Below, in pieces: positions 46,023 to 63,343 of a stretch of 64,000 nucleotides of DNA (positions are counted from its first letter, which is position 1; every line of letters starts with the position of its first letter). The notes beneath the pieces are model-generated. The model searched no databases. It was not told the origin of the DNA and saw only the letters and a program-made list of their open reading frames with translations. A program made the position numbers and the translations under genes. The DNA lies in assembly GCA_016218705.1 (NCBI GenBank), contig JACRDC010000017.1, positions 1 to 64,000 of the forward strand, given 5' to 3'. Origin of the DNA: Desulfarculus sp. (GTDB taxonomy: Bacteria > Desulfobacterota > Desulfarculia > Desulfarculales > Desulfarculaceae).

Positions 46023-46823
46023 CTACATTATCAGGCTTGCCACTTCCTCGATGGGCCGGTCGGTGACGTCAATGATGTGTATGTTTTTGACCTTGGCGAA
46101 TATCTGCTGGGCGTAGGCCAACTCGGCGCTGATGGTGGGCAGATCGCAATAGCCGTCAAGCATCGTGCCCTTGAAACGGCCCCGCCGGATCAGGGCCAGC
46201 TTTTCGGGAGCAATGGTCAGGCCCACCATGAGGGGCCGTTGCAGTTGGAATATCTTGGTGGGCGGTTTGACCCCCAGGATGATGGGCACGTTGGCCACCT
46301 TCTGGCTGTGGTTGCAGGAGATGAACAGGCTGGTGGGCGTCTTGGAGGTGCGCGACACCCCCAGGATGATGATGTCGGCATTGCCGATGGTGTCCTCGCC
46401 CAGGCCGTCGTCATGGCGCAGGGTAAAGTCTATGGACTCGGCCAGCCGCAGGGAGGCGTCGCCCAGTACCCGGTGCAAGAGCTTGCGGTCCAGGTCGGGC
46501 TTCATGTGGAAGCGCCGGCCCACCTGCTCCATCACCGGCCCCACCAAGTCCACCATCTCGATGCCGCGCCGGGGGCGCTCCTTGTCCAGCCACTCCCGCA
46601 GGCTGCGGTGCACGATGGAATAGACCACCACGCCCTCCTGGGACTCGGCTAGGTCTATGATCTTGGCCAACTGCTTGGTGGTCTTGATGAAGGCGTGGCG
46701 CACGAACACGGCCTCGTAGCGCTTGTGGAACTGCACCAGGGCCAGGCGGGCGGCCCGCTCGGCGGCTATGCCGGTGGCATCGGAGATGATGTGGGCATAG
46801 AGATGCTTGCGCGGGTGGGCCAT
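46023..46823 (-). CDS. ppsR: Pyruvate, phosphate dikinase / PEP synthase regulatory protein
   Basis: A 266-residue bifunctional kinase and pyrophosphorylase of the PSRP (DUF299) family. It inactivates PPDK or PEP synthase by phosphorylating a threonine with ADP and reverses this with phosphate. The P-loop GVSRTSKTPTS and the ISDATGIAAERAA opening are clear. The start at 46823 is chosen because GGAAGG sits eight bases upstream and the family begins there; a longer frame to 46907 is not conserved in character. The dikinase target is not in this window. Confidence 0.93.
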   Translation of the reverse strand: MAHPRKHLYAHIISDATGIAAERAARLALVQFHKRYEAVFVRHAFIKTTKQLAKIIDLAESQEGVVVYSIVHRSLREWLDKERPRRGIEMVDLVGPVMEQVGRRFHMKPDLDRKLLHRVLGDASLRLAESIDFTLRHDDGLGEDTIGNADIIILGVSRTSKTPTSLFISCNHSQKVANVPIILGVKPPTKIFQLQRPLMVGLTIAPEKLALIRRGRFKGTMLDGYCDLPTISAELAYAQQIFAKVKNIHIIDVTDRPIEEVASLIM

Positions 46824-46861
46824 GGGCAAGACCTTCCGTGACAACTGCGCCGCCAACCGAC

Positions 46862-46896
46862 GGTGGGCGTGGGTGGGCAGCCTACCAACGCCCACC
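46862..46896 (-). other. Hairpin in the leader of the PPDK regulator
   Basis: Arms GGTGGGCGT (46862-46870) and ACGCCCACC (46888-46896) pair perfectly over 9 bp with a 17-nt loop, and a shifted pairing GGGTGGGC/GCCCACCC competes with it. It lies between the likely promoter and the start codon of the PSRP gene. It could be a terminator of the upstream PilZ transcript or a leader structure. Confidence 0.4.
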
Positions 46897-46905
46897 CTGG
46901 ACAGC

Positions 46906-46935
46906 ATACTATGCCAGCACCCCCCGGCCAGTCAA
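46906..46935 (-). promoter_or_regulatory. Candidate promoter of the PPDK regulator gene
   Basis: On the minus strand, TTGACT (46935-46930) and TAGTAT (46911-46906) are separated by 18 nt, placing the transcript start near 46900 and leaving a leader of about 75 nt that contains the hairpin at 46862-46896. Confidence 0.4.
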
Positions 46936-47000: not shown

Positions 47001-48098
47001 TCATTTGAGAAGCTTGAGCCCCTGGATGGCGGCGCACTCGCTCAAGAGCAGGCGCCGGCGCTCGCGCACCGCCGGCTCGCCGTGTTTCTCCACCCAGGCC
47101 CGCACCAGCTCCCGGGCCTTGACCATGGCCGCCATGCTGCCGCCCAGGCCCCGCACCCCCAGGATGGCGGCGGCCCGCTCGGCGGGCATGTCCTCCAGGG
47201 TCACCTTGGTGGCCGTGGTGTCCACCCGCAGATGTTCGGGCACCTCGAAGACCCGGGGACCGTCGGCCGGCGGCGGCTGGTCCCGGCCAGCCTGGGCCGC
47301 CAGGGGCGCGGTGTCCAGGGGCAGCGCGGGCCCTGGCCGGGATGCCGGGGCGGGAGTGGGGGCCGGAGCGGCGGGCGCCGGGGCGGGGGGCAAGCCCCCG
47401 GCCAGGCCGGCAGCCGGCTCCAGGCACAGGCGCAGCATGGGCGCCAGCAGCAGGTGCATGCGCTCCAGGGCCGGGGCCTGCCCCTCCTCGAAGCGCAGGC
47501 CCATGACCACCTCCGAGCCGGTGATCTGGGTGTTGCGAACCTGGGCCAGCACATCCAGGGCCTGGGGGAACAGGGGCACCTGCAAGCTTATGCGCACCAG
47601 GCGGCCCTGCTGAAAATCGGCCAACGGCAGGCCGGCGCGCTTGCCCTTGGCCTGACAGCCGCCCAGGGAGATGTCGGTGAGCAGGGCCTCGCAGGCAGTG
47701 GACTGGCTGCCGTCGCGGTTCAAGGGCGCGACGTGGATGGGCACGTGCACCACGCAACGGGTCTCTGAGCTGAGCGGCACCTTGTCCAGCTGCTTGGGCC
47801 ATTCCAGGATGACCAAGAGCGGCGACTTGATCACCGTGAGCACCTTGGCGGTGAAGCCGTAGAAGCTGCCCAGGGAGACGAAGCGCACCAGCAGGCGGTT
47901 CTGGGCGAAGAGCTGCCCCATGCCCACCCACTGGGCCGGCCCGTCCAGGATCACCACCCCCTCGGGCACCCAGCCCACCAGTTTGGCCCAGGTCCGCTCC
48001 TGGCCCACCTCCTTCTGCACGATCACCTGCAGGCCCACCTGCAAGGTATCCTCTATCTGGGCCGGCCCTTGGACCACCACCGATTGCCTTTCCTTCAT
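47001..48098 (-). CDS. PilZ-domain protein with a C-terminal orphan domain
   Basis: A 365-residue protein. Residues about 12-105 resemble the YcgR/PilZN flagellar-brake domain and about 110-230 a PilZ domain, the c-di-GMP receptor. The D-x-S-x-x-G motif is present (Asp142, Ser144, Gly147), but the RxxxR motif reads R114-C-V-V-H118, so the second arginine is lost and binding may be altered. A Pro/Ala linker (about 235-280) leads to a C-terminal domain at about 298-365 that is similar to the 104-residue protein encoded at 60225-60539. No flagellar gene is nearby. Start supported by AAGGGG. Confidence 0.75.
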   Translation of the reverse strand: MKERQSVVVQGPAQIEDTLQVGLQVIVQKEVGQERTWAKLVGWVPEGVVILDGPAQWVGMGQLFAQNRLLVRFVSLGSFYGFTAKVLTVIKSPLLVILEWPKQLDKVPLSSETRCVVHVPIHVAPLNRDGSQSTACEALLTDISLGGCQAKGKRAGLPLADFQQGRLVRISLQVPLFPQALDVLAQVRNTQITGSEVVMGLRFEEGQAPALERMHLLLAPMLRLCLEPAAGLAGGLPPAPAPAAPAPTPAPASRPGPALPLDTAPLAAQAGRDQPPPADGPRVFEVPEHLRVDTTATKVTLEDMPAERAAAILGVRGLGGSMAAMVKARELVRAWVEKHGEPAVRERRRLLLSECAAIQGLKLLK

Positions 48099-57170: not shown

Positions 57171-57320
57171 GAAAACCAGTGCCTCCAGGGCCGCCCTGTC
57201 TGCTCCCGGCCATCAACCGCGAAAGCCCTTCCCTTGCGCCCCCCCACCGGCCCTATACTATTAGTAAGGGCTGGCGCCAAGGCCCGGGCGCCAAAGAGGC
57301 ACACCCCAACGGAAGCCGGC

Positions 57321-57860
57321 ATGAGCGACTGGAACGTGGTGGTGACCATAGCCGAAGGGCGCTACCGGCAGGCCCTGGACCTGCTGGCCCGCCACGGCCA
57401 AGTGTGGCGCAGCGACTTCTACAACGTACTCACCCTCAAGACCGATGACGTGACCGGCTTCCTGGAGGGCCTGCGCCAGGCCTGGCAGGACGACCCCCAC
57501 CTGGCCGGCCTGATCGGCAAGGCCATCCCCGCCAGCCAGGCCTTCACCTTCCAGAGCCCCGAGGAATTCCAAACCAAGGCCCGGGAAATCATGGCCGGCC
57601 TGGCCCCCCAGGTGGCTGGGCGGGGCTTCCACGTGCGCATGCACCGCCGGGGCTTCAAGGGCCGGCTCTCCACCATGGAGGTGGAGCAGCTCTTGGACGG
57701 CCTGCTGATGGAGCTTACCGAACAGATGGGCCGGCCGGCGCGGGTGACCTTCAGCGACCCCCAGGTGGTGGTGGCCGTGGAGACCGTGGGTACCCGGGCG
57801 GGAGTGTCGGCGTGGGAAAAGGAAGAGCGGCGGAAATATCCCTTTTTGCGCCTGGACTGA
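57321..57860 (+). CDS. THUMP-domain (Tan1-like) protein
   Basis: A 179-residue protein built as a single THUMP module: an N-terminal ferredoxin-like half (WNVVVTIAEGRYRQALDLL) and the C-terminal THUMP half with FHVRMHRRGFKGRL, an EVEQLLDGLL helix and the VTFSDPQVVVAVETVG strand pair. THUMP domains bind RNA, chiefly tRNA acceptor stems. No methyltransferase or acetyltransferase domain is attached, as in stand-alone Tan1-like proteins, which act with a partner enzyme. Start chosen at ATG 57321 with GGAAG upstream. It lies between thrS and the hibernation factor. Confidence 0.8.
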   Translation: MSDWNVVVTIAEGRYRQALDLLARHGQVWRSDFYNVLTLKTDDVTGFLEGLRQAWQDDPHLAGLIGKAIPASQAFTFQSPEEFQTKAREIMAGLAPQVAGRGFHVRMHRRGFKGRLSTMEVEQLLDGLLMELTEQMGRPARVTFSDPQVVVAVETVGTRAGVSAWEKEERRKYPFLRLD

Positions 57861-57924
57861 GTCCAGGACTGGTCCCATATCCGGTGATGAGCAATCACCT
57901 TTGCCTTGTCAGGGAGGTTTGCCT

Positions 57925-58272
57925 ATGCAGTCACCATTGCAACTCAGCGTGCGCAACTGTAGCCTGACCAACCGCCTGGAGGAGGCCGTGCGCGAACGCG
58001 CCCACAAGCTGGACCGCTACTGCGACAAGATCATCTCCTGCCGGGTGATGATCGAGTGCCCCCACCGCAGCCAGCAGAAGGGGTCGTCATACAACGTCAA
58101 GATCAACCTGAGCGTGCCGGGCGAGGACCTGGTGGTGGGACGTGAGCCCCACGAGGACATGGAGGTGGCGGTGCGCGAGGCCTTTGACGCCGCCCGCCGT
58201 CAGTTGCAGGATTATGCCCGCCGCCAGCGCGGCGAGGTTAAGTTCCGCGAGGCCGCGCCGCCGGCCGAATAG
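57925..58272 (+). CDS. hpf: Ribosome hibernation factor, HPF/RaiA family
   Basis: A 115-residue short-form protein of the ribosome-associated HPF/YfiA family: LQLSVRNCSLTNRLEEAVRERAHKLDRY opens the fold, the basic ECPHRSQQKG loop and the NVKINLSVPGEDLVV strands follow, and the ADVYEAID-like motif appears as MEVAVREAFDAARRQL. Such proteins block the decoding centre in stationary phase. The long-form C-terminal dimer domain is absent. ATG at 57925 has GGGAGG upstream. Confidence 0.85.
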   Translation: MQSPLQLSVRNCSLTNRLEEAVRERAHKLDRYCDKIISCRVMIECPHRSQQKGSSYNVKINLSVPGEDLVVGREPHEDMEVAVREAFDAARRQLQDYARRQRGEVKFREAAPPAE

Positions 58273-58440: not shown

Positions 58441-59799
58441 TTAGGCGCGGGTAACGGGCTTGACGCGGTCTTCCACGTAGTAGGTGATGCGGGTGCGGGG
58501 GCTTAAGTAATCGAAGACCTCGCCGGGCAGTTGGCAGGGATGGATGCTGCCGGTGATGGCCAGGTCGGGGTCGTCCTCCATGTCCAGGATCAGGGCCTCC
58601 TGCTTGGGGATGTCGGGGTCGTAGATCATGAGCGAGGGCTTCAACGGGTTGCTGGAGTTGACTGAGATCACCAGGCCCAGGGCCTGGTTGTTGAGCTGCA
58701 CAATGGTGCCCGGCGGATAGACGCCCAGGCAGCGGATGAAGGCCACTAGGAGGTTATGGTCCAGTTGGTTCTTGCGTTCCTTGTACATGTAGGCCAAGGC
58801 CTGGTAGGGCGTCAGCGACTTCTGCAGCACCGGCTGGTTGCACAGCTTGTCGTAGCGGTCAACGATGGCGGTGATCCTGGCCAAATGGCTGATTTCGTCG
58901 CCCTTGAGGCCGTCGGGATAACCCTGGCCGTCCAGGGCCTCGTGGTGCTGCTGGATGACCTGCGCGGCGTCGGGCGGGAAGTTGCCGCAGCGCGAGACGA
59001 TATCCACGCCGTACTTGGGGTGTAGGCGCAAGAGGGCCTGCTCGGGCTTGGTCAGGGGCGTCTCTTTCTTCAGCACCTTCTTGGGGATGTTGTTCTTGCC
59101 CACGTCGTGGAACAGGGCGCCCATGCCTAGGGAGCGCATCTTGAGCTGCCCCAGGCCGGCTTGGCTGCCCAGGACCAGGGCCAGCACCGCCACGTTGAGC
59201 GAGTGGTAGAAGATATTCTCTTCCTTGCCGCGGATATTCACCAGGTGCACCACGGCGTCGGAGTCCTCCAGGAGGCTGTCCACCATCTGGCCCACCAGCA
59301 CCCCGGCCTGCTCCACGCTCTCCTCGCTGCCGGTCATGAGGTTCTGCATCAGGGTGGGTAGCTTGTGCACGCTCTGGTTGTAGCACTCCTCGGTGCGCTC
59401 TATCACCTCGCGCCGCTCCTTGAGCCGCTCGATGCGCTCGTTCTTCTGGCGCCAAAGCTCTTGCAGGTAGGGGTCGGCCTGGGCCGCGGCCCCCTGGCAG
59501 GTGGCCGGGGCGGCGGCCTGACCCGCCGGGACGGCCGGGGCGCACCCCTGAGCCTGGGCCTGCAGCTTGGCCTTGGCCCGGCGGCCCAGCGGCAGGCGGT
59601 CGCTCTTTTCGGGTACGCAAATGACCTCGGTGATGCCCAGGGACTTCAGGGTGTCAATCTGCTTCTGGTTCTTGATCTTGAACTTGCTGAACAAAAAGGG
59701 ATGATTGAACCATTGGCCCTCCAGACGGACGAAAACCCCTGGCTGTAGCAGGTCCACCGACACGCGGTATTCGGGCGAGAAATACATGGCTGCGCACAT
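58441..59799 (-). CDS. HD-GYP domain c-di-GMP phosphodiesterase
   Basis: A 452-residue protein. The N-terminal DUF3391-like region (about 1-70; VSVDLLQPGVFVRLEGQWF) precedes a linker and a charged helix (KNERIERLKERREVIERTEE). The HD-GYP domain spans about 170-360: FYHSLNVAVLALVLG, HDVGKNNIPKKVL and the HHEALDGQGYPDGL motif, with metal-binding His and Asp residues present. HD-GYP enzymes hydrolyse c-di-GMP to GMP. A small C-terminal domain follows. A GGAGGAAAA ribosome site precedes ATG. The divergent gene at 60225 shares a domain with the PilZ protein, which links both to c-di-GMP. Confidence 0.92.
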   Translation of the reverse strand: MCAAMYFSPEYRVSVDLLQPGVFVRLEGQWFNHPFLFSKFKIKNQKQIDTLKSLGITEVICVPEKSDRLPLGRRAKAKLQAQAQGCAPAVPAGQAAAPATCQGAAAQADPYLQELWRQKNERIERLKERREVIERTEECYNQSVHKLPTLMQNLMTGSEESVEQAGVLVGQMVDSLLEDSDAVVHLVNIRGKEENIFYHSLNVAVLALVLGSQAGLGQLKMRSLGMGALFHDVGKNNIPKKVLKKETPLTKPEQALLRLHPKYGVDIVSRCGNFPPDAAQVIQQHHEALDGQGYPDGLKGDEISHLARITAIVDRYDKLCNQPVLQKSLTPYQALAYMYKERKNQLDHNLLVAFIRCLGVYPPGTIVQLNNQALGLVISVNSSNPLKPSLMIYDPDIPKQEALILDMEDDPDLAITGSIHPCQLPGEVFDYLSPRTRITYYVEDRVKPVTRA

Positions 59800-60224: not shown

Positions 60225-60539
60225 GTGGGTCTGTTAAGCGATATCTTCGGGGGCAAGAAAAAGACCGCCGTGCCCCAGCCCAGGCGCAGGCGCGATGATA
60301 AGGTGGGCCTGGCCAAGGTCATTACCTTGGAGGAAATGACCAAGAAGCGCGTCTGCGAAATCCTGGGCATCGAGGATCTGCGCGGCCCCATGGTTTCGGT
60401 GGTCAAGGCGCGCAAGCTCATGTGCGACTGGACCTCGCGGGTGGGCGAAAAGGGCGCCTATGAGAAGCGCCAATTCCTCATGAAGCAGATGAAGCAGATG
60501 GAGGGCATCATCATCGTCGAGGAGGAAGAACAGAAATAG
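60225..60539 (+). CDS. Small orphan protein sharing a domain with the PilZ protein
   Basis: A 104-residue protein, not recognised by family. A short N-terminus (GLLSDIFGGKKK) and a basic stretch (PRRRRDDK) lead into residues 31-99, KVITLEEM...EILGIEDLRGPM...VVKARKLM..W. By hand alignment about 25 of 69 positions match residues 298-365 of the PilZ protein at 47001-48098. The C-terminus is a run of Glu. GTG start with GAGGTGA directly upstream. No signal peptide or membrane helix. It is transcribed away from the HD-GYP gene. Function unknown; a partner in c-di-GMP signalling is inferred from the two contexts. Confidence 0.8.
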   Translation: MGLLSDIFGGKKKTAVPQPRRRRDDKVGLAKVITLEEMTKKRVCEILGIEDLRGPMVSVVKARKLMCDWTSRVGEKGAYEKRQFLMKQMKQMEGIIIVEEEEQK

Positions 60540-60724: not shown

Positions 60725-61741
60725 ATGTTCCCTCCCGGTCTGCCCATGGGGATGCCCATGACCAACAAGCTCATCACCCTGGCCCAGGCGGTGGCCCGCT
60801 ACACCTGGGACGGCATGACCTACGCCCATGGTGCGGCCTTCCCCGTGGGGGCCGACTCGGTGGTCTTCGGCCGCGAGATGGCCCGCCAGGGCCGCCGCGG
60901 CCTGAACCTGATCTCCCACTGCGGCTCCCAGCAGCTCAACCTGCTGGCCGCCCTGGGCGCCGTGCGCCGGGTGGAGGTGGGCTTCTCGGGTCTGGAGGTC
61001 TACGGCTTCGCCAAGGGGCTCAACCGGGCCGTGGTCAGCGGCCAGACCATCATCGAGGACTACTCCAACGGGGCCATGGCCCTGCGCTTTTTGGGCGGGG
61101 CCTTGAACTGGCCCTTCGTGCCGGCCACGGTCTGCCTCAACAACGACCAGCAGTGGTGCAGCGGCGACCACCCCGACGAGTACCCCTGCGCCCGCAAGAT
61201 TCCCGAGATAACCGACCCCTTCAGCGGCAAGAAGCTGGGCGCCTTCAGCGTGCTCAGGCCCCAGGTGGCGGCCATCCACGTCACCATGGCCGACATGGAG
61301 GGCAACGCCATCATGCTGGGCTCGGAGTGGAGCCGCTTCGAGATGGCCCGCGCCGCCGGCCAGGTGGTGCTGGTGGCCGAGCGCATCGTGGACCAGGGCT
61401 GCATGCGCCAGTACCCCAACCTGGTGCGCATCATCTCCGAGGTGGTGGAGGCTATTGTCTACTGGCCCTGGGCGGCCTGGCCCCAGTCGGTGGTGGGGCT
61501 CTACGACAGTGACGAGGAGCACATGCTCCTGATGAACGACATGCTGGCCACGGCGGAGGGCACCGCCCAGTACCTGGAGCGCTACGTGCGCGCCTTTCAG
61601 ACCCGCGCCGAGTTTCAGGCCCTCATCGGCCCGGAGAAGATGGACCGCCTGGCGGCCACGGCCACGGCCTTTCTCATGGACCCCTACCGCCGCTGGATAC
61701 TGCCCGACGACCAGATCGCCGCCCTGGAGCAGGAGGGCTAG
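60725..61741 (+). CDS. CoA-transferase alpha subunit, GctA-like
   Basis: A 338-residue family I CoA-transferase subunit, like the A subunit of glutaconate CoA-transferase: it opens with the DGMTYAHGAAFPVGADSV phosphate-loop region, then LNLISHCGSQQLNLL and the conserved C-terminal EHMLLMNDML stretch. It pairs with the next gene to move CoA between acyl groups. ATG at 60725 is the outer start; an internal ATG at 60758 (MTNKLITL) is equally plausible. The beta-subunit gene begins 2 nt after its stop. Confidence 0.85.
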   Translation: MFPPGLPMGMPMTNKLITLAQAVARYTWDGMTYAHGAAFPVGADSVVFGREMARQGRRGLNLISHCGSQQLNLLAALGAVRRVEVGFSGLEVYGFAKGLNRAVVSGQTIIEDYSNGAMALRFLGGALNWPFVPATVCLNNDQQWCSGDHPDEYPCARKIPEITDPFSGKKLGAFSVLRPQVAAIHVTMADMEGNAIMLGSEWSRFEMARAAGQVVLVAERIVDQGCMRQYPNLVRIISEVVEAIVYWPWAAWPQSVVGLYDSDEEHMLLMNDMLATAEGTAQYLERYVRAFQTRAEFQALIGPEKMDRLAATATAFLMDPYRRWILPDDQIAALEQEG

Positions 61742-61743
61742 CC

Positions 61744-62532
61744 ATGGACTGCACCCGCCAGGAGTTCATGGCCATCGCCACCGGCCGCGAGCTCAAGGAC
61801 GGCGAGCTGGCCATCTTCGGCGTGGGGCTTAGCATGCTGGCCGGCTACTTCGCCAAGAAGAACCACGCCCCCAACCTGAGGGCCTTCACCGAGGGCGGGG
61901 TCTTCGGCTCCACCCCCGTGGGCGGCCTGCCCTGGGGCATCGAGTGCACGCGGCTCTCCGCCAACGCCACCAGCTTCACGGGAGCCCTGGACGCCCTGGG
62001 CTTTCTGGTGGCCAGCGGCCGCTGCGACGTGGCCATCATCGGCGCCGCCCAGATAGACAAGTACGGCAACGTCAACACCACCGGCATCTGGCGGGAGCCG
62101 CCCTGGAAGGCCGGCCGCTACGCCCCGCCCCGGGTGCGCCTCAACGGCAGCGGCGGGGCCAACGACATCGCCGTGGGGGCCAAGCGCTTCATCATCATGG
62201 CCGCCCACGACAAGAAGCGCTTCGCCGAGCGCGTGGACTACATCTCCTCGCCGGGCTATCTAAGCGGTGGCGACGCGCGCGAGCGCGCCGGCTTCATCGG
62301 CGGCGGCCCCAGCGCCATCATCACCACGCTGGGCATCCTGCGCCCCCACCCGGTGAGCAAGGAGTTCTATCTTGACGCCTATTTCCCCTTCTCCTCGGTG
62401 GAGGAGATAAGGGAACACACCGGCTGGGACCTGAAGGTTTCAGCAAACGTGCGCGTGGTGCCCGAGCCCACGGAGCAAGAACTGGCCAACCTGCGGGCCG
62501 TGGACAGCACCGGCTCGCTGCGCAAGAAATAA
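61744..62532 (+). CDS. CoA-transferase beta subunit, GctB-like
   Basis: A 262-residue family I CoA-transferase subunit that carries the catalytic glutamate: LRAFTEGGVFGSTP places it at Glu50, in the usual E-G/S-G setting. A GYLSGGDARERAG stretch and a C-terminal ADEDL-like tail follow family patterns. The two subunits and the crotonase gene downstream form one operon (gaps of 2 and 25 nt), so they probably activate and hydrate an unsaturated acyl-CoA. The substrate is not clear from sequence. Confidence 0.88.
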   Translation: MDCTRQEFMAIATGRELKDGELAIFGVGLSMLAGYFAKKNHAPNLRAFTEGGVFGSTPVGGLPWGIECTRLSANATSFTGALDALGFLVASGRCDVAIIGAAQIDKYGNVNTTGIWREPPWKAGRYAPPRVRLNGSGGANDIAVGAKRFIIMAAHDKKRFAERVDYISSPGYLSGGDARERAGFIGGGPSAIITTLGILRPHPVSKEFYLDAYFPFSSVEEIREHTGWDLKVSANVRVVPEPTEQELANLRAVDSTGSLRKK

Positions 62533-62557
62533 GCAGGCCCAAACAAAAGGGAGCGTC

Positions 62558-63343
62558 ATGGCCTATCAGCACATCCTGTACGAGGAAAAAGACGAGATCG
62601 GGCTCTTGACCCTCAACCGCCCGGCCAAGCGCAACGCCCTGTCGCGGGCCTGCGAGGAGGAGATCATCGCCTGCCTGGAGGAGGCCGCCGCCCGCCACGC
62701 GGCCAAGGTCATCATCCTGAGGGGCGCCGGCGATCTCTTCTGCGCCGGCCACGACCGCAGCGAAATCCTCAATCAGCCCGCCGGCGAGATCCGCCGCCTG
62801 TTCCACACCTCGGTCACGATGATGACCGCCATCCGCTCGGCCCCGCAATGCGTCATCGCCCAGGTGCACGGCATCGCCATGGCCGCCGGCTGCCATCTGG
62901 CCGCCGGCTGCGACCTCATCACCGCCGGGGCCGAGCACGCCCGCTTCGGCATGACCGGGCTCATCTACTCCTACAACTGCTCCACCCCCACGGTGGCCGT
63001 GAGCCGGGCCGTGCCCCAGAAGAAATGCCTGGAGATGCTCATGACCGCCAAGCTATACACGGCCGATGAAGCCGAGCGCTTCGGCCTGGTCAACAAGATA
63101 TTCCCCGACGCCAGCCTGGCCGAGGACACTTTTGCCTGGGCTCGTGAGATCGCCCAGTCCAGCAAGTACGCCATCGCCATGTCCAAGCAGGTCTTCTACG
63201 CCCAGTCGGAGATGACCGAGTGGCAGGCCTACCAGTACGCCAAGGAGATGATGGCCCTGGCCGGGGTCAGCCCCAACGCCACCGAGGGCTTCGACGCCTT
63301 CCTGAACAAGCGCCAGCCCACCTGGAACGACGACAGCTTTTAA
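62558..63343 (+). CDS. Enoyl-CoA hydratase/isomerase family protein
   Basis: A 261-residue crotonase-fold protein. The first oxyanion-hole segment FCAGHDRSEIL and the second, HGIAMAAGCHLAAGCDL, are clear. The region that normally supplies the catalytic acids reads FGMTGLIYSYNCSTPT and has no Glu at either usual site, as in ECHDC3-like members, so hydratase activity is not assured. KKCLEMLMTAKLYTADEAERFGLVNK is the typical helical section. It completes the CoA-transferase operon; GGGAG precedes ATG. Confidence 0.87.
   Translation: MAYQHILYEEKDEIGLLTLNRPAKRNALSRACEEEIIACLEEAAARHAAKVIILRGAGDLFCAGHDRSEILNQPAGEIRRLFHTSVTMMTAIRSAPQCVIAQVHGIAMAAGCHLAAGCDLITAGAEHARFGMTGLIYSYNCSTPTVAVSRAVPQKKCLEMLMTAKLYTADEAERFGLVNKIFPDASLAEDTFAWAREIAQSSKYAIAMSKQVFYAQSEMTEWQAYQYAKEMMALAGVSPNATEGFDAFLNKRQPTWNDDSF

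What the first reader, a model, noticed from the sequence alone, without database searches (positions are those of the whole stretch)
60225..60539. Undescribed domain of about 70 residues shared by a small orphan protein and a PilZ protein
Residues 31-99 of the 104-residue protein align with residues 298-365 of the PilZ protein at 47001-48098 without large gaps. By hand count about 25 of 69 positions are identical, including KV-TLE-M, ILG, VKAR and W-x4-GE. Both occurrences are next to c-di-GMP functions: one is fused to a PilZ domain, the other is divergent from an HD-GYP phosphodiesterase. This suggests a small output or adaptor module for c-di-GMP signalling.
Basis: partly seen in the sequence, partly recalled or inferred. 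Interest (0 to 1): 0.78.

Follow-up and report, generated by a model that had tools for sequence, protein, structure and literature searches.

The report
Genus-restricted domain on a PilZ protein
A small protein of unknown function and the tail of a PilZ signalling protein in the same Desulfarculus-type bacterium share a real 70-residue domain that no searched library describes and that was found only in one genus, so it is a genuine but narrow novelty whose role in cyclic-di-GMP signalling is plausible but unproven.

Summary
Residues 30-99 of the 104-residue protein (60225-60539, +) align without gaps to residues 296-365, the extreme C-terminus, of the PilZNR-PilZ protein at 47001-48098 (-): 24 of 70 identical, score 125 against a best of 60 or less in shuffles. 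A third, independent copy (94-residue protein, 38 of 93 identical) from a genus relative aligns to both. The domain matches nothing significant in Pfam, NCBIfam, PHROGs or PDB, by sequence or (PDB) by fold. It was found only in one Desulfarculus-like genus (3 of 6 genomes). AlphaFold gives a compact model (domain pLDDT about 90, but only one of five models confident). The c-di-GMP interpretation is partly supported: one copy is fused to PilZ and one faces an HD-GYP gene, but the relative's copy lies beside gyrB and a hybrid kinase, with a GGDEF gene second downstream. The genome has roughly 50 c-di-GMP genes, so such neighbours are only modestly unlikely. The PilZ domain has RxxxH instead of RxxxR, so ligand binding is uncertain. 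Best reading: a lineage-specific, probably protein-binding module added by a Pro/Ala linker to a YcgR-type PilZ protein.

The parts
60225..60539 (+). 104-residue protein: low-confidence, basic N-terminal 29 residues (MGLLSDIFGGKKK...RRRR) followed by the shared domain; GTG start preceded by AAGAGGTG
   Evidence: codon-position pattern of differences to its orthologue; model
60312..60521 (+). shared domain, copy 1 (residues 30-99)
47001..48098 (-). 365-residue PilZNR-PilZ (YcgR-type) protein carrying the domain at its C-terminus
   Evidence: Pfam PF12945 residues 22-98, PF07238 residues 113-213
47004..47213 (-). shared domain, copy 2 (residues 296-365)
47214..47423 (-). acidic Pro/Ala-rich linker (residues 226-295; 26% Pro, 23% Ala) between PilZ domain and tail domain
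58441..59799 (-). divergent neighbour: DUF3391 + HD-GYP (HD_5) protein; HDxGK and HHExxDGxGYP motifs present by reading the sequence

Best explanation
The two segments are homologous copies of one domain of about 70 residues that exists free (with a basic, probably flexible N-terminal tail) and as a linked C-terminal tail on a YcgR-type PilZNR-PilZ protein. I think it most likely acts as a small protein-binding module. On the PilZ protein it would let the signalling core engage, or be tethered to, a partner; the free protein would bind the same partner, or pair with the tail, as a helper or competitor. Shown: homology, architecture, restriction to one genus in the genomes searched, protein-level constraint. 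Inferred: the fold (one confident model of five), protein binding, any c-di-GMP dependence.
For: Ungapped similarity far above shuffles, and a third independent copy. The domain sits at the end of a PilZNR-PilZ protein after a Pro/Ala linker, while the closest paralogue in the same genome ends without it, so it is an added module. Domain residues are modelled at pLDDT about 82-94 per block, and the PilZ tail is predicted with the same helix positions after a shift of 266 residues, at low confidence. No catalytic or nucleotide-binding family matches. c-di-GMP context: PilZ fusion, HD-GYP neighbour in G000 and G003, GGDEF gene second downstream in G002.
Against: The neighbourhood is not conserved in G002. 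The genome has about 24 GGDEF, 18 HD-GYP, 9 PilZ and 6 EAL proteins, partly overlapping, so an adjacent c-di-GMP gene has roughly a 3% chance for any gene and one within two genes about 5% (my estimate, assuming about 3,900 genes). The PilZ domain has RCVVH where canonical ones have RxxxR, and replacing both arginines abolished binding in a YcgR homologue (PMC11800159). Four of five structure models had low confidence, and the tail model was made with the homologues in its alignment, so it is not independent.
Confidence: 0.42

Rival explanations
1. The domain is a lineage-specific orphan module with no particular tie to c-di-GMP; the PilZ fusion is a one-off recruitment and the HD-GYP neighbour is coincidence in a genome rich in such genes.
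For: Fusion seen in one genome only; G002 copy lies beside gyrB and a hybrid histidine kinase; roughly 50 c-di-GMP genes in the genome.
Against: All three independent settings have a c-di-GMP gene fused, adjacent or second downstream; a fusion is direct evidence for at least that copy.
Confidence: 0.38
2. The domain is a divergent helix-turn-helix (sigma region 4-like) DNA-binding domain.
For: One member (PilZ tail) weakly matches NCBIfam NF009164, an RNA polymerase sigma factor, at E 0.0014 for the tail alone, profile positions 120-175; the PilZ tail and the free protein are basic.
Against: The other three members do not match it and the score is far below the curated cut-off. The model has helix-strand-long helix-helix-helix-strand order rather than a helix-turn-helix, and Foldseek finds no HTH structure.
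Confidence: 0.07
3. The free protein is a regulator of the divergent HD-GYP phosphodiesterase, with which it forms a conserved pair.
For: Divergent arrangement kept in the 95-96% identical relative.
Against: The two genomes are close, so conservation is weak evidence; in G002 the free protein is not beside an HD-GYP gene in the 16 kb read.
Confidence: 0.1

Closest known systems
YcgR-type PilZN/PilZNR-PilZ proteins (YcgR, MotI, FlgZ)
   Same: PF12945 (PilZNR) followed by PF07238 (PilZ), as in the usual two-domain architecture (PMC11800159)
   Different: Adds a Pro/Ala linker and an unrecognised 70-residue C-terminal domain; second Arg of the RxxxR motif is His
YcgR homologues with an inserted GAF-like (GAZ) domain in Leptospirales (PMC11800159)
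   Same: A lineage-restricted extra domain added to a YcgR-type protein
   Different: There the domain is inserted inside PilZ and is GAF-like, and c-di-GMP binding was measured; here it is a C-terminal tail without a recognised fold that also exists alone
No known family for the 70-residue domain itself
   Same: No significant match in Pfam, NCBIfam, PHROGs, PDB sequences, PDB folds or viral folds
   Different: Found in one genus only

Membership tests
YcgR-type PilZ protein (47001-48098) | N-terminal PilZN/PilZNR-type domain | tested here: met
   PF12945 residues 22-98, E 3.4e-6, above cut-off
YcgR-type PilZ protein (47001-48098) | PilZ domain | tested here: met
   PF07238 residues 113-213, E 1.3e-6, above cut-off
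canonical c-di-GMP-binding PilZ domain | RxxxR motif | tested here: not met
   RCVVH in P0002; the paralogue at G000:C79 has RVRVH
canonical c-di-GMP-binding PilZ domain | [D/N]xSxxG motif | tested here: met
   DISLGG
canonical c-di-GMP-binding PilZ domain | binds c-di-GMP | not testable with these tools
   needs a binding assay
sigma-70 region 4-like HTH | sequence match to a sigma-factor family across members | tested here: not met
   one of four members, E 0.0014; 15.1 bits for the full protein against a cut-off of 185
sigma-70 region 4-like HTH | HTH fold | tested here: inconclusive
   model order is H-E-H-H-H-E and Foldseek finds no HTH, but only one of five models is confident
one shared domain (both copies) | significant similarity beyond composition | tested here: met
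one shared domain (both copies) | same predicted fold | tested here: inconclusive
   same helix positions, but the PilZ tail is modelled at pLDDT about 40-65 with homologues in its alignment

The most novel reading that the evidence does not exclude
A new, lineage-restricted adaptor fold that couples YcgR-type PilZ output to a specific partner and is also used free, as a trans-acting partner or competitor, in c-di-GMP signalling of Desulfarculus-like bacteria.
Probability: 0.2. Interest if true: 0.5.

Novelty: new variant of a known kind. Interest (0 to 1): 0.3.

Why it matters
If true, it adds one more way of extending PilZ proteins: a small dedicated module shared in trans with a free protein, which would make the output partner of a YcgR-type protein in this lineage easy to fish out. 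Its narrow distribution limits its general importance.

Tried and rejected
Chance similarity: rejected by shuffles and a third homologue. Weak phylum hits (CheA in G302, a related hit in G430, an aminotransferase-like protein, a GTPase) cover part of the domain at E 0.001-0.007 per genome over 395 genomes and lie in unrelated known proteins: rejected as chance. Family-wide weak hits at E 0.07-3 sit in unrelated or wrong-frame ORFs. Helix-turn-helix reading: see rivals. N-terminal amphipathic membrane helix MGLLSDIFG: its hydrophobic moment of 0.32 is close to the average for 9-mers of two other window proteins, so not supported, although the MGL-S start is kept in G002. Conserved synteny of the PilZ gene: the gene upstream of the PSRP-like gene's orthologue in G001 and G002 is not PilZ. 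Plasmid, phage and viral collections: no match.

Full report
OBSERVATION. The 104-residue ORF at 60225-60539 (+) and the 365-residue ORF at 47001-48098 (-) are as described. Local alignment pairs residues 30-99 with 296-365, ungapped, 24 of 70 identical, score 125; the best shuffled score was 50 in 2000 trials and 60 in 1000 trials. In the whole genome the small protein finds only itself and the PilZ tail (E 1.8e-10). The DNA of the two copies is 54% identical, with codon position 2 the most conserved (63%), so this is an old relationship kept at protein level rather than a recent DNA repeat.

GENE REALITY. A 95-96% identical orthologue exists in a Desulfarculus sp. groundwater MAG (L003; its contig has the same length as G003:C286, so these are probably the same record). 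Differences fall 2/1/12 on codon positions 1/2/3, and an AAGAGGTG motif precedes the GTG start. The upstream intergenic region differs in length between the two genomes.

DISTRIBUTION. Three of six genomes of the genus carry the domain: G000 (two copies), G003 (one, syntenic with HD-GYP) and G002 (one, 94 residues, 38 of 93 identical). A four-sequence profile found it in no other of 63 class genomes, in 395 phylum genomes (only chance-level hits), or in 46 genomes of another class of the phylum (that search has no positive control). The three genus genomes without a hit are only 54-71% complete, so absence there says little. Plasmids, phages and viral contigs gave nothing. A scan of 84,980 species genomes found only the near-identical relative, but that kind of scan reaches close relatives only. 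Other phyla were not searched with the profile.

ARCHITECTURE. The PilZ protein has PilZNR (22-98) and PilZ (113-213) domains, an acidic Pro/Ala linker and then the tail domain. The nearest paralogue in the genome (L041:5002-5670, contig C79) lacks the tail and lies directly downstream of a PAS-GGDEF gene. The PilZ relatives of other genomes that were read also lack the tail. The fusion is therefore known from one genome only. The DxSxxG motif is intact (DISLGG) but RxxxR reads RCVVH; in ten related PilZ proteins that second Arg column also varies. In a Leptospira YcgR homologue, replacing both arginines by alanine abolished binding (PMC11800159). Binding by this protein must be tested, not assumed.

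STRUCTURE. AlphaFold with four sequences: residues 31-99 at block means 82-94, the first 29 residues below 50; elements H40-47, E49-53, H56-73, H75-80, H82-90, E96-99. Mean pLDDT of the five models was 75, 59, 58, 49 and 49, so the fold is provisional. Foldseek gave nothing below E 2 in PDB or BFVD. The full PilZ protein modelled poorly (mean 40), with helices 306-313, 321-339 and 341-356, matching the free protein after a shift of 266; the homologues in its alignment make this supportive, not independent.

CONTEXT. Free copy in G000 and G003: divergent from a DUF3391-HD_5 gene with intact HD-GYP motifs, upstream of CoA-transferase genes. Free copy in G002: gyrB on the other strand, then on the same strand a PAS-GAF-HisKA-receiver hybrid kinase and a GGDEF protein about 3.4 kb on. 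The genome holds about 24 GGDEF, 18 HD-GYP, 9 PilZ and 6 EAL proteins, some with two of these domains. With roughly 3,900 genes (estimate), an adjacent c-di-GMP gene is expected for about 3% of genes and one within two genes for about 5%. The three settings together are suggestive, but they were singled out after the fact.

MECHANISM. I rank a protein-binding module highest: small, probably compact, charged, attached by a flexible linker, also free, with no enzyme or nucleotide-binding relatives found. Whether c-di-GMP controls it depends on an untested PilZ domain with a degenerate motif. The rival of a generic orphan module is nearly as likely.

VERDICT. A real shared domain, undescribed in the libraries searched and narrow in distribution; the c-di-GMP role is plausible only. 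Interest moderate to low.

Noticed in passing
window 47001-48098: The PilZ domain has RxxxH instead of RxxxR while keeping DxSxxG; the paralogue on contig C79 has the same change, so a subfamily may have altered ligand binding.
   Followed up: partly
L041:3983-7665 (G000 contig C79): A PAS-GGDEF gene is directly followed by a tail-less PilZ paralogue and then a chemoreceptor-like gene, a likely local c-di-GMP module.
   Followed up: partly
window 60725-63343: Two consecutive CoA-transferase subunit genes and an enoyl-CoA hydratase-like gene; from memory the arrangement resembles IpdAB-type ring-degradation CoA transferases.
   Followed up: no
window 57234-58272: A ribosome hibernation (Ribosomal_S30AE) gene and a conserved protein without a Pfam match lie next to the HD-GYP gene, kept in the G003 relative (L003).
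   Followed up: no
window 46023-46907: Gene resembling pyruvate phosphate dikinase regulatory proteins (from memory); the genome has three such places, at 100, 54 and 49% identity to it.
   Followed up: no
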